A stretch of DNA of 64,000 nt from assembly GCA_026417375.1 (NCBI GenBank), contig JAOADJ010000031.1, forward strand, positions 1 to 64,000, written 5' to 3'. The translations under genes and the position numbers were made by a program. Position 1 is the stretch's first letter; every line of letters starts with the position of its first letter. The stretch is from Melioribacteraceae bacterium (GTDB taxonomy: Bacteria > Bacteroidota > Ignavibacteria > Ignavibacteriales > Melioribacteraceae). Below, piece by piece: positions 48,368-57,990 of the stretch. Under the pieces are notes generated by a model. It had not been told where the DNA came from and did no database searches. It worked only from the letters and a program-made list of their open reading frames with translations.

Positions 48368-48399
48368 TTTGAATTTTTAAAGTAAAGTTTTTATTTTTG
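48368..48399 (+). promoter_or_regulatory. Candidate promoter of tetR
   Basis: TTTG (48368-48371), 20 bases, TATTTTTG (48392-48399), an exact TAnnTTTG match. The last two bases overlap the tetR operator, so a bound repressor would block transcription start. Confidence 0.5.
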
Positions 48400-48415
48400 A
48401 ATAGTGGTTCATTAT
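48398..48415. promoter_or_regulatory. Putative TetR operator O1
   Basis: TGAATAGTGGTTCATTAT. It is 17/18 identical to the element before tolC and carries the dyad TGAA-N6-TTCA. It overlaps the end of the tetR -7 box and lies 9 bases before the tetR ATG. Confidence 0.65.
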
Positions 48416-48424
48416 TAAGTTTAA

Positions 48425-49012
48425 ATGAGAGTTAAAGAAGGAAATAAAGAAAAAGATATTCTTGAAGCTGCAATTAAACTTTTTGCTGAAGTTGGTTATC
48501 ATAAAGCAAAAATCTCAAAAATTGCTGAAATGGCAGGAGTAGCAGCTGGCAGCATTTATTTGTATTTCGAAGACAAAGAAGATATCCTTTTGAAAATTTT
48601 TGATGAAATATGGCACCGTATATATTTAGAACTATTAAAAATTAAAAATAACTCAAATCTTTCCCCTTTTGATAAATTTGATGCTATGATAGATTTGATT
48701 TTTGATATTTATATTGAAAATCCCAATTTAGCTATGGTTTTTGTGAACGAACAGAACCATATTCAAAGAAGTACACCGGAAAAATTTACTGTATTTTATG
48801 AAAAATTCCTTCTTTCGGGTGAAGATATTATTAAAGAAGGTATTGAAAAACATGCTTTTACAAATAATTTAGATATTAATATACTAAGACAATTCATTTT
48901 TGGTGCAATAAGAAGTTTATTGCAGCATTGGGCTATTGATCCTAAAACTTATCCATTAAACAAGATCAGACAGAATATAAAGTTTATAATAAAGTATGGT
49001 ATAGAAAAATAA
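48425..49012 (+). CDS. TetR/AcrR family transcriptional regulator
   Basis: 195 residues. The N-terminal HTH is ILEAAIKLFAEVGYHKAKI, then SKIAEMAGVAAGSIYLYFEDKEDILL, a FadR/YsiA-like member by its YLYFEDKEDIL. The C-terminal ligand domain is unassigned (ends MKYGIEK-like residues). It sits directly before the efflux genes and has an operator-like dyad in its own promoter and another before tolC, so it is the likely repressor of the efflux operon and itself. The ligand may be a fatty acid or a hydrophobic drug; not determined. Confidence 0.9.
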   Translation: MRVKEGNKEKDILEAAIKLFAEVGYHKAKISKIAEMAGVAAGSIYLYFEDKEDILLKIFDEIWHRIYLELLKIKNNSNLSPFDKFDAMIDLIFDIYIENPNLAMVFVNEQNHIQRSTPEKFTVFYEKFLLSGEDIIKEGIEKHAFTNNLDINILRQFIFGAIRSLLQHWAIDPKTYPLNKIRQNIKFIIKYGIEK

Positions 49013-49029
49013 TTTTTTTAAATATTTAA

Positions 49030-49047
49030 TGAATATTGGTTCATTAT
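49030..49047. promoter_or_regulatory. Putative TetR operator O2
   Basis: TGAATATTGGTTCATTAT. It has the dyad AATGAA-N6-TTCATT when one base is added on the left, and matches O1 at 17 of 18 bases. It lies 13 bases ahead of the tolC ATG. Confidence 0.7.
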
Positions 49048-49060
49048 ACAGAGATAAAAT

Positions 49061-50521
49061 ATGAAATCATTTAAAATATTTTTCTTGATGCTTCTTCAAA
49101 TTAGCATAATTAATGCTCAACAAATTAGTTTAAGTCTTCAGGATGCAGTGAATCTTGCCCTGAATAATAATTCTTTAATAAAACAATATGAAGAAAAATT
49201 AAAACAAAAAGAATTTGATTATTTGGCTTCACTGGGAAATTTTTTACCGAGTTTGAATTTCGGTTTAAGTTATACTCACTTAAATCAAAATATGAAAATT
49301 GATTTAAATCCTATTCGGGAGGTTATATTAAATCTTCAATCAACAAATCAAACCGAGTTAATTAATTTGGGAAATATTTTGTCGGGGAAATCCCCTCTTA
49401 ATGAATCACAAAAGAGTATTGTAAAAACACAGGCATATAATTCTTTAAATGAAATAATTCCACAGTTTAAGGAAACTTTCAAAAAACAAGATTATCGTAC
49501 AGGTTCTTTTAGTATCTACCAACCAATTTTTATGGGTGGTAAATTATTAGCAATTAAAAATGCGTCCAAAAATGAAAAATCAGCAGCATATTTTGAATTA
49601 ATTAAACTTAAAAATGAAATTTCTTACCAAACGATAGATTCTTATTTAAAAGTTATTTTATTAAAAAAAGCTGTTAAAACAAGAAAAGATGTTTTAGACG
49701 GAATAACAAAACATAAATTCAAAGCTCAAAAACTTTTTGAAGAAGGGTTGATTGCTAAAAATAATTTATTAAAAGCAGAGGTAGCTCAATCAGAAGCAGA
49801 AAGAAATTATGAAAAAGAAAAAAATAATTTATCGCTTGCTATTGAATCATTTAAAACAATAATTAATTCAGATAAAAATATTGATATTAATTTTGTTGAC
49901 TCTTTAACTTATCATAAAAGCAATTATAATTTTGATTCATTAAAAGTAATTGCAAAAAACACACAGCCTATTCTCAAAATTTTAGATGTAAAAAAGAATT
50001 TAAGTCATAATAATTATTCTATATTATATTCATCATTCCTACCAACAATTGCAGCTTTTGGTAAATATGAAATTTATCCGGAATATTTATCAAGTTTAGA
50101 ACCACGCTGGGCTATTGGTTTACAACTAAGCTATAATCTTTTTAATGGATTTAAAGATTATCTGAAATTGCAAAGTGCAAAACACTTAGAAGATGAACTT
50201 ACATTTGCTGAAAAAGATATTAATGACAAAATAGAACTATGGCTTTTAAATTCATATTTAGAAATAAAAAATAAAACTAATGAATTTGAAAAATTATCAT
50301 CTTCAATTGAATTAGCTGTAGAAAATTTAAGACAAAATGAAAAGAGATTTGAAACTGGATTAGGCACATCATTAGAAGTTATAGACGCACATCTTACATT
50401 TGAAAAAATTGAATTGGAAAAATTTTACACTCTTTACCAATATTATTTATCAGTTGCAAATTTAAATTTAGCTCTCGGAAAACCATCTGATCTATTTTAT
50501 GTATGGAATAAACAGGAGTAA
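49061..50521 (+). CDS. TolC family outer-membrane efflux channel
   Basis: 486 residues with signal peptide (KSFKIFFLMLLQISIINAQ). The N-terminal LSLQDAVNLALNNNSLIKQYEEK and later internal repeats (SFYQPIFMGGKLLAIKNA; LLKAEVAQSEAERNYEKEKNNL) are the TolC/OEP features; the second half has GLQLSYNLFNGFKDYLKLQ. It forms the outer-membrane and periplasmic channel of a tripartite export system with the adaptor and two permeases next to it. Starts 13 bases after operator O2. Confidence 0.9.
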   Translation: MKSFKIFFLMLLQISIINAQQISLSLQDAVNLALNNNSLIKQYEEKLKQKEFDYLASLGNFLPSLNFGLSYTHLNQNMKIDLNPIREVILNLQSTNQTELINLGNILSGKSPLNESQKSIVKTQAYNSLNEIIPQFKETFKKQDYRTGSFSIYQPIFMGGKLLAIKNASKNEKSAAYFELIKLKNEISYQTIDSYLKVILLKKAVKTRKDVLDGITKHKFKAQKLFEEGLIAKNNLLKAEVAQSEAERNYEKEKNNLSLAIESFKTIINSDKNIDINFVDSLTYHKSNYNFDSLKVIAKNTQPILKILDVKKNLSHNNYSILYSSFLPTIAAFGKYEIYPEYLSSLEPRWAIGLQLSYNLFNGFKDYLKLQSAKHLEDELTFAEKDINDKIELWLLNSYLEIKNKTNEFEKLSSSIELAVENLRQNEKRFETGLGTSLEVIDAHLTFEKIELEKFYTLYQYYLSVANLNLALGKPSDLFYVWNKQE

Positions 50522-50525
50522 TGAA

Positions 50526-51509
50526 ATGAAAATAAACAAAAATAAATTAATTATAAGTTTTCCTTTTGTATTAATGATTATCTCTTTAACGTTTTTAGTT
50601 ATTAAATCATATCAAAAAGAAGAAATAGTAATAACCGGAATTGTTGAAGCAAATGAAATTGATGTAGCTTCTAAAATTCCGGGAAGAATTGATTCTATTT
50701 TGGTTCAAGAAGGTAATGAAGTAAAAAAAGGTCAGGTATTAGCTATACTAGAAAGTAAAGAAATGGATGCAAAAATAGAACAAGCAAAAGGAATGATGGA
50801 AGCTGCAAGGGCAAAAATGGAAATGACAAAAAAAGGATCAAGAATTGAAGAAATTGAAGCAACACAAAAATTATTTAATCAAGCTAAAGCTCAATATGAT
50901 TTTGCCTTTAAGACTTACGAAAGATTTAAAAAACTTTATTCAGAAAAAATCATTTCAACTCAAGAAATGGATGAAATGGAATTCAAATACTTGTCTGCAA
51001 GAGATCAAATGGAAGCCGCTAAAGTGAAATTAAATTTGGTTAATAATGGTGCACGGGATGAAGAAATATTAGCAACAAAATCATTATTTCATCAAGCTGA
51101 AAATGCTTACAAAGAAGCATTAGCTTATTATGAAGAATTAAAATTAAAAGCTCCGGTTGATGGTGAAGTTTATCAGAAAATTAGTGATGAAGGTGAAATT
51201 ATAAATAGTGGCTACCCAATTTTTACTTTGTTAAAAAAAGATGATTCTTATGTTATCATTCAAGTAAAGGAAAATTTAATGAAATACATTGAGAAGGATA
51301 AAATAATTAAAGGTACTATACCAGCATTAAATAATAATTCTTACAACTTTAAAGTAGATTACATTGCTCCTATGGCAGATTTTGCCACATGGAAACCTAC
51401 TAATCAAAAAGGAGACTATGATTTAAAGACTTTTGAAGTTCATTTAAAATCTACAAGTAATATTAAAAATTTAAGACCGGGAATGACCGTTAACTTTCAA
51501 TTAAATTAA
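50526..51509 (+). CDS. HlyD-type periplasmic adaptor protein
   Basis: 327 residues with one N-terminal membrane helix (about 8-28, KLIISFPFVLMIISLTF). A biotinyl-lipoyl half motif is VASKIPGRIDSILVQEGNEVKKGQVLA. A long coiled-coil hairpin with repeats follows (EQAKGMMEAARAKMEMTKKG; FNQAKAQYDFAFKTYERFKKL), then LKAPVDGEVYQKISDEGE and a beta-barrel. It links the inner-membrane permeases to TolC. ATG 50526 is preferred: AGGAG lies 7 bases ahead, and an earlier ATG at 50521 is followed at once by a stop. In HlyD/YhiI fashion it belongs with ABC-2 type permeases. Confidence 0.9.
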   Translation: MKINKNKLIISFPFVLMIISLTFLVIKSYQKEEIVITGIVEANEIDVASKIPGRIDSILVQEGNEVKKGQVLAILESKEMDAKIEQAKGMMEAARAKMEMTKKGSRIEEIEATQKLFNQAKAQYDFAFKTYERFKKLYSEKIISTQEMDEMEFKYLSARDQMEAAKVKLNLVNNGARDEEILATKSLFHQAENAYKEALAYYEELKLKAPVDGEVYQKISDEGEIINSGYPIFTLLKKDDSYVIIQVKENLMKYIEKDKIIKGTIPALNNNSYNFKVDYIAPMADFATWKPTNQKGDYDLKTFEVHLKSTSNIKNLRPGMTVNFQLN

Positions 51510-51513
51510 ATAA

Positions 51514-52683
51514 ATGACAAGCTTATTTAATATAATAAAACGTGAATTTAAGAGAATTTCTGAAAGAAAAACTCTTTACTTAATGTTAATAATAATTCCT
51601 GTAATAATATTTTTTATTTATGGATTGATATATAAAGATGAAATAATAAGAGAAATTCCAACAGCAATTCTTGATGAAGATAATTCTTCCCTTTCACATA
51701 AAATTATTCAACAAATTGAATCATCAAGTTCATTAAGAATCGTTAAGTATTCATTCGATATGAATGAATTAAAAGAAGATTTTTTAGATGGAAAAATTAA
51801 AGCTGCATTCTACTTCCCTAAAAATTTTGAAAAAGATATTAAAGCCGGGAAGAATTCTACAATTGTTGTTTATAAAAACTCATCAAATTTAATTTTAAGC
51901 AACTTAATTCTTAAAGATGCTTCAACAATTATAAAAACTATTTCAGCTTCTATTCTTCTTAAAAAAATCAGATCGAAGGGTAATTCGTTTTCTAAGTCAT
52001 TTGATTTAATTAATCCTATAAAAATTGAAATGGCGGTAATTTATAATCCTAATTATAGTTATTCAAATTATTTAGTTCCTGCATTAATCGGTTTTACTTT
52101 TCAACTTCTTATTATGGTTGCAACTGTTTTAGTATTTTCATCTGAATTTTCTCATGATACATTTGATGAACTAATTGAAATTTCAAAAGGGAATAAAATT
52201 GTTATAATATTAGGAAAGCTGATACCACATTTCCTGATAAATTATTCTACAATCTTTTTAATAATGGTTATTATTTTTCCAACATTTAACATTAATATTT
52301 ATTCATCAAATTGGGAATTTGTATTAATATATTCAATCTTTGTTTTAGCAAGTATTACAATAGCTTTTGCAATTTCAAGTTTAATTCATGATCAACAGTT
52401 TGCAACAGAAGTTGCTGTTTTCTTTAATACACCATCATTTATTTTTAGTGGTTTTACTTTCCCACTTTGGGCAATGCCAAAGGTACATACTTATTTTGCT
52501 CAACTAATGCCTTTTACACATTTTATTTCTGCATCTATTAAAGTAATGTATTTAAAAAATTCTTTTGGTTCGGCTAAAACTGAAATACTAACCTTATTGT
52601 CTTTTGTGTTTATTTCTCTACTTATAAATTTTATTTCCATAAGCTATCATTTAAATAAAATTGATAATACTGTGAAGAATTAA
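51514..52683 (+). CDS. ABC-2 type transporter permease (first)
   Basis: 389 residues of the YhhJ/LinL-like ABC-2 permease type. One N-terminal membrane helix (about 20-42; LYLMLIIIPVIIFFIYGL) is followed by a large periplasmic domain (to about 175) and five C-terminal helices (YLVPALIGFTFQLLIMVATVLVFS; IFSGFTFPLWAMP). The FTFPLWAMP stretch is the typical ending motif. Pairs with the next gene as two half permeases. No ATP-binding subunit is encoded nearby. Confidence 0.87.
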   Translation: MTSLFNIIKREFKRISERKTLYLMLIIIPVIIFFIYGLIYKDEIIREIPTAILDEDNSSLSHKIIQQIESSSSLRIVKYSFDMNELKEDFLDGKIKAAFYFPKNFEKDIKAGKNSTIVVYKNSSNLILSNLILKDASTIIKTISASILLKKIRSKGNSFSKSFDLINPIKIEMAVIYNPNYSYSNYLVPALIGFTFQLLIMVATVLVFSSEFSHDTFDELIEISKGNKIVIILGKLIPHFLINYSTIFLIMVIIFPTFNINIYSSNWEFVLIYSIFVLASITIAFAISSLIHDQQFATEVAVFFNTPSFIFSGFTFPLWAMPKVHTYFAQLMPFTHFISASIKVMYLKNSFGSAKTEILTLLSFVFISLLINFISISYHLNKIDNTVKN

Positions 52684-52684
52684 A

Positions 52685-53854
52685 ATGAACCGTTTATCTA
52701 ACATATTAAATATTTTTTATAGAGAAATAAATCTTCTGAAAAAAGATAGAAACTTAATTTCTGTATTAATTATTGCTCCTGTTTTCTACGCTTTCTTTTA
52801 CGGTTCAATTTATTTTAATAAATCTGAAATTGATGTACCAATTACAGTTGTTGATAATGATAATTCATTTTTATCTAATCGTTTAATCAGAAATTTAGAT
52901 TCACATCAATTAATATCTATTTATAAAGTAACAAAAGATTTTTATGAAGCAAAAAATGATTTTCAAAATTTATCTTCACAGGCTATTATTGTTATTCCAT
53001 CAGATTTTGAAAATAAAATAAAAAAAGGGAATGGAGTACAACTAAAACTTTATCTGAATTCAACAAGATTCTTGATTTCAAATGATGTAAATAAATCTGT
53101 TAATGAAGTTATTTTAACAACAAATTCTTTAATTCGATTAAAATACTTTCAATCGCAGGGCTACAGCTATGACCAAGCAAAAGAAATGATTGAACCTGTA
53201 AGATCTGAAATTAAATCACTTTATAATTTCACTGATAGTTATGGTGATTTTTTAATACCTGCAATTTTAATTCTGATTTTACATCAAACATTACTTATTG
53301 GTTTAGCAGAAAGTTTTGCTAAAGAAAATGAAAATTCAACATTGAATGAATTATATGAATTATCAAACAAATCCATTCATATTATAATTTTAGGGAAAGG
53401 TTTGATTTATTTGATACTTTATTTCTCTTATACTTTGTTTTTCTTCAATGTTCTATTCAATGTTTTCAAAATTCCATTTGTTGGTTCATTTATTTTATTT
53501 TCATTTTTAACATTGCTGATGATTTTTTCTACTGTTACTCTAGCAATTTTTATTAGTACATTTTTCAATAGAAAAATTTTAGCTATTCAATATTTAGCTC
53601 TTTCATCATATCCAATTTTTTTAATTTCGGGTTACAGCTGGCCTGAGGAATCACTTCCATTTTTTCTGAAGATATTTTCTTGGTTAATTCCTTTTACACC
53701 TTTTAGTAATGTAACAATAAAAATTACTCAAATGGGTGCAAGTATTAATAATGTATCTGCAACTTTAGTGCATCTATTTTTTTTAGCAATAATCTATTAC
53801 ACAATTTCATATATAAGGTTAAATAAACTAATTAAAAAAACAAATCGAGGTTAA
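52685..53854 (+). CDS. ABC-2 type transporter permease (second)
   Basis: 389 residues, the same layout and length as the preceding permease: an N-terminal helix (about 25-45), a periplasmic domain, and a five-helix C-terminal bundle with ISGYSWPEESLP. The two are paralogues by pattern, divergent at most positions but with matched layout (FLIPAILILILHQTLLIGLAESFA). They should form a heterodimeric membrane part. It starts one base after the stop of its partner. Confidence 0.87.
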   Translation: MNRLSNILNIFYREINLLKKDRNLISVLIIAPVFYAFFYGSIYFNKSEIDVPITVVDNDNSFLSNRLIRNLDSHQLISIYKVTKDFYEAKNDFQNLSSQAIIVIPSDFENKIKKGNGVQLKLYLNSTRFLISNDVNKSVNEVILTTNSLIRLKYFQSQGYSYDQAKEMIEPVRSEIKSLYNFTDSYGDFLIPAILILILHQTLLIGLAESFAKENENSTLNELYELSNKSIHIIILGKGLIYLILYFSYTLFFFNVLFNVFKIPFVGSFILFSFLTLLMIFSTVTLAIFISTFFNRKILAIQYLALSSYPIFLISGYSWPEESLPFFLKIFSWLIPFTPFSNVTIKITQMGASINNVSATLVHLFFLAIIYYTISYIRLNKLIKKTNRG

Positions 53855-54422: not shown

Positions 54423-54448
54423 AAGCAGCGGATTATTCCGCTGCTTTT
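54423..54448 (+). terminator. Terminator of the efflux operon
   Basis: A perfect 10-bp inverted repeat (AAGCAGCGGA / TCCGCTGCTT) with loop TTAT, then TTTT. A T-run follows only on the plus strand. The stop codon of the GH13 gene (54433-54435, minus strand) forms part of the loop. Confidence 0.85.
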
Positions 54449-57400
54449 AAATTTAGATATTCTTTTAATAATTCAAATTTGTAAGCTGATTGTGAGGCAA
54501 TTTTCTTTATTTCAATTATTGTTTTGTAATAGTTATTCATAAATTCTAAAACTGCTAACTCCTCTTTATCTTTTTCAATAAATTCAGAAACTCTTATTGT
54601 AAAAAACCAATTCAACAATTCTTCAAAATTTTCTTTACTGAAATATGTTACATTTTGATAAACATTAACACCAATAAATTTTTGAGTTGTATCATCTTCA
54701 AGAACATTTAATAATCTTTTTGCAATTATTTTTTCATTGAACTTTTCTTCAAAATCTAATGCCTTTGTTCCATAATTTAATAAAACATTCAAAAGATTAA
54801 TTTCAAGATAAATATCTTGTTCTCCCCTTCCAAAATGACTTAATATATTTCTAACAGGTTTTGTTAAGTTTAACTTATTAAGATAATTTTCTTTGTTGAT
54901 TAATCCTTCAGTTGGCAAATTGTTTCTCAGATTTAATAGAGTTAGCCATATTAAATACAAAATTGAATTTTCATGATAGTTTGCTTCTTTAGAAACAACT
55001 AAACTTTTTGGAAGTTGTTTTAATTTGATGTTGGATTTTATTTCTATTTCTTCTTCCAGTAATAAATTAATTCTGCGTATTGATAATATTGATTTTTCAA
55101 AACTTTTGATAATATCATAAGGATTGTAACTAGCATTAAAATAATTTTTGACTATTGTTAAAAATTCCAAAAATTCATTATCAATAAAATTTAATGATCG
55201 TTTTTCAAGATCTACATCATGTTTATTAATTACAATAGCTTCAATAAAACTATTAATTGATTCATAACTGAATAATTTTAGATATGAATTATGGATTGGT
55301 TCAAGTTTCATTTCTTCAAGTTCTTCATAGATATTTTTTACACCTTTTCCATTTAATCTTTTGTAGAGATTATAAAAATCACCATTCGAATCAAAAACCT
55401 CTTGAAAATCAATAAATACTTTATACTTGAAAGCTCCAAGATATATTGAGAACCCATTTGAAATTAAATCAGTTGCTTTTAGTATAAATTGTTGATTCGA
55501 CACATGTTCCCGATATATATAATAACAATTATCTGCTGAATTAATTTTTAGACAATCATTAATTTTTCTTGACTCTGTTATTTTGTTTTCCCCTTCCTTA
55601 GAAATTAACTTTTTTGTTGACCACAAAATTTTTCCTTTTGCTTCTTGAAATTTATTATTATAAAAAATTATTGCTCTTTCGTTGTTTTCATAATTTGTAA
55701 ATGCAAAAACATTTTCATTTATATTTCCATATTCATCTACAAAATCATAAAACCAGAAATTTGATACATGGCTAAATAAATATCTTTTTTTCATTAAAGG
55801 GAAAATTTCTTTTTGGTGTCTTTCAATTAACCATTGATTTGGAAATTCATTATAATATGCACGTTGATATTCCATACCATATTTTTCGGTGTATCCTTCA
55901 ATTTGTCCATGAGCAAACATTGGTAAACCAGGTAGTGTAACCATTAAAGTGCAAACACCAAAATATTTATCATCACTACCAAATTGTTTTATAGCTGTTT
56001 CTTCGTCTGGATTACTCATGAAATTGACATAACGTTTAAGTATTTCAGGTTCAAATTCAAGAGTTTCAGAAATTAAATATCTATACTTATTATTTTCTTC
56101 TTTCATCATCATATGCATAAATGCTGAATTGTAAACACGATGCATTCCAAGTGAGCGTACAAAATATCCTTCAAGTAACCAGAAAGCTTCAGCAAGTAAA
56201 AGTGTTTCAGGCATTTCCTGATTTATTCTGTCAACAACTTCACGCCAGAATTCAATTGGAAATTTATTATCAAACTCTTCTTTTGTCATACTGAAATCAG
56301 CACGAGATGGAATATCGCCACCTTTACCTGGTTCAGGATACCATAATCTTGAAAAATGTTTTTTTGTTAATGTCATTGCAGCATCAAAGCGAATAATGGA
56401 AAATTTCTTAGCCACATCAAATATTTTTTGAATTACTGCCTCGCGAACTTCTTTTTCTAACATATTTAATTGAGCAGTATCATTCCATGGCATATTTGTT
56501 CCATCGTTACCATGATAAATATATCTAACTTCACCAGTTCTGTTATCTATTCTTTGAAACACAACAGCCGCATCACTTTTTCTGTAATAACCATCTTCAA
56601 TTCTTATTTGTACTGAAGGATCATCTGATAAATCTGGACCACTAAAAGTATAATTTGGGAAAGGTGATTGATTAGTTTGAATAAAATAGTTTGGATATTT
56701 AATTACCCAATCAGAAAATATTCCTGTATGATTTGGAACCATATCACTTGCTAATCTTATTCCTCTAATTTTACAACGATGATTTAAATTATTATATGCT
56801 TCTTCTCCACCAAGATCTTTTGCAATTTGATAATCATATAATGAATATGCAGAAGATACTGCATCAATATTTCCCATAATATGTTTAATTTTTTTTGATG
56901 CACTACTTCTTTCCCAAATTCCAATTAACCATAATCCATTAAAATTCCATTTTGCTAATTGATCTAATTCTTCATCAGGAATTTGATTAAGAGTTTTTAT
57001 TTCTCTTCCATATTTTTTAGAAAGTTGATCCAACCACACATAACTATTTTTTGCAATCAAAACTACATTTGGCATCCAATCAATGTCTTTTGTGAAATTT
57101 TCTGGTTCAATAAAATCTTTCCAAGCATCCTGAGCATATTTATAGCCCGATTTACCAAGTGTTAAAAATTCCAGTTCTGATTCACCTTTATAATCTGGTG
57201 CAACTGATGGTGCGCCGCCAAATCCGGTATGTTCTAAAACAAATTCCTCTTTGAATAAATCTTTACTTGTTAATATTCTCTTTAAAAATTTATCACTTAT
57301 AAGTATTCCAAATTTTTCTTTTATAAATTCTAATTGTGCTTCAATATCTTCTGGATTTGTTATTATAGGTAATTTTAATAAAGTAAAAATATCTTGATTT

Positions 57401-57990
57401 AATGGACTAACTTTTTTTTCGTTTTTAAAGAACTCTTCCAAAATTTTAATTGATTCATTATATATTTCTTTATGCCCGAGATAATTTTCATTAAATAGTT
57501 CAACAATTTTTTTATTTGATGGGTTAATGTTTGCAAAGTATAAAAGAATTATTTCTTCAAGAGTAATTAATGTATTTGCTCTTTCATCTGTATAAGAATT
57601 TAAATAATCATAAAGTTCTTCTTTACCTTTATAAACATTTAAAGGTGGGAACACAGAACAAAAATCAAAAAAAAGTTTTCTTACTTTTTCAATACCAAGA
57701 TCATTATTTAATTTATTTAATGCCTTTTCAAAAACACCCGGATTAATTTGCGTTTCATAAATTCTAAAGATGTAATGATAAATTTCATCAATTAAACCGA
57801 ATGCATTAACCAAACCAGGTGATACATGTTCTTCAATATTTCTTTTATCATTTATTTTTTTAACAAAGTTTCTTACAGCAATAAAATTGGCAAAAACTAC
57901 ATTTCCATTTAAAGAAAATAATTCATCAGAAATGTCATATTTTTTTCTGATTTCTTTAGCAATGTGAAATTCATATTTAATTTTAATCAT
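54433..57990 (-). CDS. Large GH13 alpha-amylase family protein
   Basis: 1185 residues, about twice a usual GH13 enzyme. The catalytic TIM-barrel spans roughly 300-760: region I D416-M-V-P-N-H421, nucleophile D536 in IIRFDAAMT, acid/base E601 in LLLAEAFWLLEG, and region IV N-P-D662. Region IV lacks the usual histidine (NHD). About 280 residues ahead and about 420 after the barrel match no fold I can name; both are helix-rich. No signal peptide, so it is probably cytoplasmic and acts on glycogen or maltosaccharides; glgC lies elsewhere in the window. Hydrolase or transferase cannot be decided. ATG 57990 has a weak ribosome site. Divergent from mutS. Confidence 0.82.
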   Translation of the reverse strand: MIKIKYEFHIAKEIRKKYDISDELFSLNGNVVFANFIAVRNFVKKINDKRNIEEHVSPGLVNAFGLIDEIYHYIFRIYETQINPGVFEKALNKLNNDLGIEKVRKLFFDFCSVFPPLNVYKGKEELYDYLNSYTDERANTLITLEEIILLYFANINPSNKKIVELFNENYLGHKEIYNESIKILEEFFKNEKKVSPLNQDIFTLLKLPIITNPEDIEAQLEFIKEKFGILISDKFLKRILTSKDLFKEEFVLEHTGFGGAPSVAPDYKGESELEFLTLGKSGYKYAQDAWKDFIEPENFTKDIDWMPNVVLIAKNSYVWLDQLSKKYGREIKTLNQIPDEELDQLAKWNFNGLWLIGIWERSSASKKIKHIMGNIDAVSSAYSLYDYQIAKDLGGEEAYNNLNHRCKIRGIRLASDMVPNHTGIFSDWVIKYPNYFIQTNQSPFPNYTFSGPDLSDDPSVQIRIEDGYYRKSDAAVVFQRIDNRTGEVRYIYHGNDGTNMPWNDTAQLNMLEKEVREAVIQKIFDVAKKFSIIRFDAAMTLTKKHFSRLWYPEPGKGGDIPSRADFSMTKEEFDNKFPIEFWREVVDRINQEMPETLLLAEAFWLLEGYFVRSLGMHRVYNSAFMHMMMKEENNKYRYLISETLEFEPEILKRYVNFMSNPDEETAIKQFGSDDKYFGVCTLMVTLPGLPMFAHGQIEGYTEKYGMEYQRAYYNEFPNQWLIERHQKEIFPLMKKRYLFSHVSNFWFYDFVDEYGNINENVFAFTNYENNERAIIFYNNKFQEAKGKILWSTKKLISKEGENKITESRKINDCLKINSADNCYYIYREHVSNQQFILKATDLISNGFSIYLGAFKYKVFIDFQEVFDSNGDFYNLYKRLNGKGVKNIYEELEEMKLEPIHNSYLKLFSYESINSFIEAIVINKHDVDLEKRSLNFIDNEFLEFLTIVKNYFNASYNPYDIIKSFEKSILSIRRINLLLEEEIEIKSNIKLKQLPKSLVVSKEANYHENSILYLIWLTLLNLRNNLPTEGLINKENYLNKLNLTKPVRNILSHFGRGEQDIYLEINLLNVLLNYGTKALDFEEKFNEKIIAKRLLNVLEDDTTQKFIGVNVYQNVTYFSKENFEELLNWFFTIRVSEFIEKDKEELAVLEFMNNYYKTIIEIKKIASQSAYKFELLKEYLNLKAAE

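What the first reader, a model, noticed from the sequence alone, without database searches (positions are those of the whole stretch)
48398..49047. Two near-identical dyads mark a TetR autoregulated efflux switch
TGAATAGTGGTTCATTAT (48398-48415) and TGAATATTGGTTCATTAT (49030-49047) differ at one base. Both carry TGAA-N6-TTCA and lie just before tetR and just before tolC. The first overlaps an exact -7 box. The regulator's HTH resembles the FadR/YsiA branch of TetR proteins, whose operators also contain TGAAT half sites. It is therefore a concrete operator-regulator prediction.
Basis: partly seen in the sequence, partly recalled or inferred. Interest (0 to 1): 0.6.

Follow-up and report, generated by a model that had tools for sequence, protein, structure and literature searches.

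The report
Self-controlled switch for an export pump
Two matching DNA marks flank a TetR-type repressor gene next to an export pump, and the same marks recur at the same places in dozens of related bacteria, so they are almost certainly the landing sites by which the repressor controls itself and the pump: a solid but fairly ordinary kind of bacterial switch.

Summary
TGAATAGTGGTTCATTAT and TGAATATTGGTTCATTAT lie where stated, and in the 2.8-Mb genome no other place comes within one mismatch. In this window alone, TGAA-N6-TTCA is no commoner than chance.

The relatives settle it. TGAA-N6-TTCA lies within 80 bp upstream of tetR in 49 of 53 orthologous loci (shuffles: 0.6), with exactly that spacing. 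It also lies just after tetR in 30 of 53, chiefly where a tolC pump operon or its OMP gene follows (28/32 against 3/22). It persists in GC-rich and phylum-level relatives. In one genome where the pump operon lies away from tetR, the site still precedes tolC, on a full promoter. In a genome where another TetR heads the operon, the N6 site is missing.

Site 1 sits on the -7 box in 42 of 49 loci. Site 2 never does, so how tolC is transcribed in the linked arrangement remains open. The regulator has a Bacillus-FadR fold and recognition helix but misses the FadR cut-off; an acyl-CoA ligand is not supported.

Kind: an autoregulated TetR efflux switch, a known kind; the operator family looks undescribed. 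Side finding: the ABC-2 exporter lacks an ATPase gene throughout its relatives.

The parts
48369..48372 (+). TTGA, -33 element of the tetR promoter, 19 nt before the -7 box
   Evidence: sequence; TTG[AC] with 19-20 nt spacing in 43 of 49 relatives
48392..48399 (+). TATTTTTG, -7 box (TAnnTTTG) of the tetR promoter
   Evidence: exact TAnnTTTG ending at the operator G in 42/49 relatives; consensus from PMC6847099
48425..49012 (+). tetR: 195-aa TetR regulator, YsiA/FadR-like
   Evidence: PF00440 and PF08359; best PDB matches Bacillus FadR; predicted fold closest to FadR
49061..50521 (+). tolC: outer-membrane efflux protein
   Evidence: PF02321; synteny in 27 loci
50526..51509 (+). hlyD: periplasmic adaptor, best NCBIfam match PRK03598 (secretion protein HlyD)
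51514..52683 (+). ABC-2 permease A
   Evidence: PF12698
52685..53854 (+). ABC-2 permease B
   Evidence: PF12698
53856..54395 (+). outer-membrane beta-barrel protein; directly follows operator 2 in loci without tolC
   Evidence: PF13505; L050, L055, L058, L101
54423..54446 (+). terminator-like hairpin after the operon
   Evidence: 10 pairs, 6 GC, then T-rich

Best explanation
The 195-aa TetR protein is a dimeric repressor that binds TGAAT-N4-ATTCA (here TGAAT-N4-GTTCA) at two places. At operator 1 it sits on the -7 box and probable start point of its own promoter and blocks RNA polymerase, giving autorepression. At operator 2, just before tolC, it holds down the export operon tolC-hlyD-ABC2-ABC2-OMP. 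An inducer, probably something the pump exports, binds the C-terminal domain, loosens the dimer from both operators, and lets pump and repressor be made together. Shown by comparison: the sites, their coupling to this regulator and to the pump, and the promoter overlap at site 1. Inferred: binding, repression, induction, and the identity of the inducer (unknown). For tolC two modes remain: read-through from the tetR promoter with operator 2 as an extra block, or a promoter of its own that is not recognisable by consensus.
For: Upstream site in 49/53 orthologous loci against 0.61 in shuffles, spacer exactly 6. Site 2 present in 28/32 loci where tolC, the OMP or an efflux adaptor follows (31/32 with one mismatch) against 3/22 elsewhere, Fisher p = 8e-8, not corrected for shared ancestry. 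Site kept in GC-rich relatives (61% and 54% GC) and in other classes of the phylum, 34-48% protein identity, six of six; G442 carries the identical 14-mer before tetR and before a TolC-like gene. G008: pump operon on another contig than tetR keeps the dyad on a TTGACA...TTATTTTTG promoter 16 nt before tolC. G009: operon headed by a non-orthologous TetR (29% identity) has no N6 site; its tetR start has TATTTTTGAAC-N6-GTTCA (a TGAA-N8-TTCA dyad) instead. Recognition helix G-[ST]-[IV]-Y-[LV]-Y-[FY] and Lys51 shared with B. subtilis FadR. FadR structures head the fold list, Z 21.6-21.1, rmsd 2.1-2.4 over 183-185 residues. -7 overlap in 42/49.
Against: No binding or transcription data. Site 2 has no TAnnTTTG at the site-1 register in any of 30 loci, so the tolC promoter in the linked arrangement is not located. 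Four upstream regions lack an exact site (L084, L089, L094, L096; the last has one mismatch). Three loci keep a downstream site without a recognised pump gene next (L056, L059, L060). Relatives share ancestry, so counts are not independent events.
Confidence: 0.9

Rival explanations
1. The dyads are ARG boxes bound by the arginine repressor ArgR (E. coli consensus, recalled, roughly TGAATWWWWATTCA), not operators of the neighbouring TetR.
For: The half-sites are alike; this genome has an ArgR with a perfect TGAATAATTATTCA 42 bp before its own start.
Against: ArgR is not found in G015, G028, G033 and G051 (all 99-100% complete) nor in several others that keep tetR and the dyad. The commonest core (TGAATAATGATTCA) has a G in the right centre, unlike AT-only ARG boxes, and the dyad follows this TetR and its pump.
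Confidence: 0.02
2. Same regulator, but operator 2 is mainly a roadblock inside a single tetR-tolC transcript, with no promoter of its own.
For: No -7 box at site 2 (0/30). Site 2 shows dyad extension (TAA...TTA) free of promoter constraint. In G009 tolC starts directly after the tetR stop, so co-transcription from the tetR promoter is likely there. No stable hairpin between tetR and site 2 in this window.
Against: Hairpins, in L052 and L063 followed by T-runs, lie between tetR and site 2 in some relatives such as L052, L063, L077 and L090. In G008 the unlinked tolC has a full promoter.
Confidence: 0.4
3. The regulator is a fatty-acid regulator (FadR) that controls the pump in response to acyl-CoA, as RaaS does in mycobacteria.
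For: FadR is the nearest solved relative; RaaS, a TetR protein released from DNA by oleoyl-CoA, controls ABC efflux pumps (PMC4155686).
Against: NF053878 score 132.9 against cut-off 200. The FadR DXR arginine is Asn here and most often Lys among orthologs; the Gln154 and Tyr174 positions, kept in this protein, vary widely among orthologs. No second regulon member found in this genome at this stringency.
Confidence: 0.15
4. The two dyads are a chance or copied repeat in AT-rich DNA.
For: The bare pattern is not enriched in the window.
Against: Conservation with fixed spacing across the phylum, also at 54-61% GC.
Confidence: 0.01

Closest known systems
Bacillus FadR (YsiA), TetR family
   Same: Fold, length, TetR_C_4 domain, recognition helix; dyad operator with TGAAT-type half-sites (B. 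subtilis box recalled from memory, not checked here)
   Different: Below the FadR equivalog cut-off; CoA-contact residues not kept in the family; targets an export operon and not, as far as found, fatty-acid degradation genes; arm spacing apparently shorter
E. coli CecR (YbiH)-YbhGFSR efflux operon
   Same: TetR gene heading an operon of HlyD-type adaptor and two ABC-2 permeases (PMC7190983)
   Different: Here tolC is in the operon and the ATPase (YbhF) is missing
Mycobacterial RaaS (Rv1219c) with the Rv1218c/Rv1217c pump
   Same: Autorepressing TetR protein with an ABC efflux pump (PMC4155686)
   Different: RaaS itself is only distantly FadR-like in the ligand domain; an oleoyl-CoA response is not indicated here
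AcrR, MtrR, TtgR class of local efflux repressors
   Same: Logic: local TetR repressor, inducible multipart pump (recalled)
   Different: RND pumps, other operators, more distant sequence

Membership tests
TetR family repressor | TetR_N helix-turn-helix domain | tested here: met
   PF00440 59 bits, cut-off 24
TetR family repressor | all-helical TetR fold | tested here: met
   model pLDDT 89.6; top PDB matches TetR proteins, Z 21.6
TetR family repressor | dyad operator at its own promoter | tested here: met
   comparative footprint only, 49/53
TetR family repressor | DNA binding relieved by ligand | not testable with these tools
   needs purified protein
FadR (NF053878, Bacillus type) | score above the equivalog cut-off | tested here: not met
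   132.9 bits against 200
FadR (NF053878, Bacillus type) | recognition helix GTIYLYF..K | tested here: met
   GSIYLYF..K; Gly42, Tyr45, Tyr47, Lys51 invariant in 53
FadR (NF053878, Bacillus type) | acyl-CoA contact residues (DXR Arg150, Gln154, Tyr174) | tested here: not met
   Arg is Asn in the window protein; Gln and Tyr kept here but variable among orthologs
FadR (NF053878, Bacillus type) | operators at fatty-acid degradation genes | tested here: inconclusive
   no other near-identical site in the genome; looser sites were not assigned to such genes
YbhGFSR-type ABC exporter | HlyD adaptor plus two ABC-2 permeases | tested here: met
YbhGFSR-type ABC exporter | ATPase subunit in the operon | tested here: not met
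   no ATPase gene in the window operon; no ATPase hit in the operons of relatives
Bacteroidota -33/-7 promoter | TTG ... TAnnTTTG at 19-20 nt | tested here: met
   site 1 in the window; 42/49 and 43/49 in relatives
ArgR ARG box | ArgR present wherever the site is kept | tested here: not met
   near-complete genomes with the site but no ArgR match

The most novel reading that the evidence does not exclude
A repressor lineage with one nearly invariant operator across a bacterial phylum drives a conserved class of tripartite ABC-2 exporter that has no ATPase gene of its own and must borrow an ATPase in trans or be powered otherwise, with a second, promoter-free operator acting as a transcriptional roadblock.
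Probability: 0.25. Interest if true: 0.6.

Novelty: new member of a known kind. Interest (0 to 1): 0.4.

Why it matters
It gives a concrete, phylum-wide regulator-operator pair for bacteria (Ignavibacteria and relatives) for which the library searches made here turned up no described TetR operator. The motif is specific enough to test binding directly and to look for the regulon in other genomes. It also shows how a Bacteroidota-type -7 box and a repressor site share bases, and it points to a conserved export operon without an ATPase gene.

Tried and rejected
Counting TGAA-N6-TTCA in the window alone gave no signal. ArgR as the binder was rejected. Chance or repeat origin was rejected. A wider regulon in this genome: of nine composite hits only the tetR site (L123) and L117 lie between genes near a start; L117 was not followed. 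A composite-motif scan of 196 relatives returned many tetR promoters plus scattered other hits, which were not annotated further. The Bacillus halodurans FadR-DNA paper is not held, so the Bacillus operator could not be checked in print. T. thermophilus FadR binds TTRNACYNRGTNYAA (PMC5597230), so FadR operators are not uniform. Paper searches for this pump layout and for Ignavibacteria TetR operators found nothing relevant. The sigma-70 consensus scan was uninformative here (37 found, 44.7 expected).

Full report
WHAT IS THERE. Both 18-mers are at the stated coordinates and differ at one base. Site 1 (48398) shares its first two bases with an exact TATTTTTG box (48392-48399), which has a TTGA 19 nt before it; the tetR ATG is at 48425. 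Site 2 (49030) lies between tetR (stop at 49012) and tolC (ATG 49061) and is the more symmetric: TAATGAA-N6-TTCATTA. The operon reads tetR, tolC, hlyD, two ABC-2 permeases and an OMP gene. The closest named relative is Stygiobacter electus, 77% identical in TetR, so the window comes from the Ignavibacteria.

IS IT MORE THAN CHANCE. In the window the loose pattern is no commoner than in shuffles. The 18-mers are the only genome matches with at most one mismatch. The composite of -7 box plus dyad occurs nine times in the genome; only the tetR site and one other, L117, lie between genes close before a start.

CONSERVATION. Orthologs were found in 53 of 196 relatives, and their loci with downstream DNA were fetched. 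TGAA-N6-TTCA lies within 80 bp upstream of tetR in 49 of 53 loci (shuffle mean 0.61, max 3) and within 80 bp after the tetR stop in 30 of 53 (shuffle mean 0.29); other spacers from 0 to 12 give 0 or 1. The consensus is TATTTTTGAAT-N4-ATTCATTA at site 1 and TGAATAATGATTCA with TAA/TTA flanks at site 2. The downstream site follows the pump: 28 of 32 loci with tolC, OMP or an efflux adaptor next (31 of 32 at one mismatch), against 3 of 22 without. Where only the OMP gene remains, the site precedes that gene. Six further orthologs from the wider phylum (34-48% identity, GC 33-61%) all carry an upstream site, and G442 has the same 14-mer at both places.

NATURAL EXPERIMENTS. In G008 tetR (contig 26) and the pump operon (contig 30) are apart; the pump operon keeps TGAACCGTGATTCA 16 nt before tolC, on a full TTGACA / TTATTTTTG promoter. 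In G009 the operon follows a different TetR (29% identity); no N6 site is present, and the promoter of that TetR carries a dyad of N8 spacing on its -7 box. Site identity therefore follows regulator identity, and site position follows the regulated promoter.

THE REGULATOR. Pfam gives TetR_N and the YsiA-type C-terminal domain. FadR of Bacillus is the nearest solved protein by sequence, profile and fold. The recognition helix matches FadR; in a Sulfolobus FadR, Tyr, Leu, Gly and Phe residues of this helix contact bases (PMC6449355). The residues reported to contact CoA in B. subtilis YsiA (DXR Arg, Gln154, Tyr174; PMC4155686) are not kept in the family, and the FadR equivalog cut-off is missed. 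The protein is FadR-like in how it probably reads DNA; what it senses is open.

MECHANISM. Site 1 covers the end of the -7 box and the probable start point, so a bound dimer should block initiation. The -7 element TAnnTTTG is the published Bacteroidota consensus (PMC6847099). Site 2 never carries that box in register (0 of 30), while some relatives have a hairpin between tetR and site 2. So tolC may be read from the tetR promoter with site 2 as a roadblock, or from a promoter not recognised here; G008 shows that the operon can have its own promoter with the dyad on it. Steps shown: sites, conservation, coupling, overlap. Steps inferred: binding, repression, induction.

RIVALS. ArgR boxes look alike, and ArgR is present here with such a box before its own gene, but near-complete genomes without an ArgR match keep the tetR dyad. 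Chance is excluded by conservation. A fatty-acid role is possible but not supported.

NOVELTY AND INTEREST. A local TetR repressor controlling itself and an efflux operon is a known kind. The operator family and its breadth seem undescribed in the papers that could be searched. The pump without an ATPase gene is the least ordinary feature: no ATPase gene lies in the window operon, and a search with this genome's own ABC ATPase reading frames found none in the relatives' operons, whereas the same genome has a complete adaptor-ATPase-ATPase-permease-permease operon elsewhere.

Noticed in passing
window 50526-53854: HlyD plus two ABC-2 permeases with no ABC ATPase gene in the operon; the absence holds across relatives with the operon, although a complete five-gene version exists elsewhere in the genome (L194:4829-9614).
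   Followed up: partly
L160:6860-6910 (minus strand), G009: A different TetR heads the same pump operon; its promoter carries TATTTTTGAACCTATTAGTTCA, the same half-site type with two more bases of spacing, and tolC follows the tetR stop directly.
   Followed up: partly
L111 (G000:C19:86205-86218): Perfect ARG-box-like dyad TGAATAATTATTCA 42 bp before an ArgR gene, likely its own autoregulatory site and easily confused with the TetR operator.
   Followed up: yes
L095:1243: In G088 the downstream site precedes an adaptor and RND-type pump genes in place of the tolC/ABC-2 operon, so the regulator lineage may have changed pumps.
   Followed up: no
L059 and L101 (G014): Two tandem paralogous tetR genes, each with its own upstream dyad and a dyad after each.
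   Followed up: no
window 54433-57990 (minus strand): A 1185-aa amylase-like reading frame next to the operon; a similar frame lies directly next to tetR in relatives without the pump (L065, L084, L086), marking where the operon was gained or lost.
   Followed up: partly
L117 (G000:C2:30996-31015): Another intergenic -7-box-plus-dyad hit, near the starts of a 426-aa and a 209-aa gene; a possible further target or chance.
   Followed up: no
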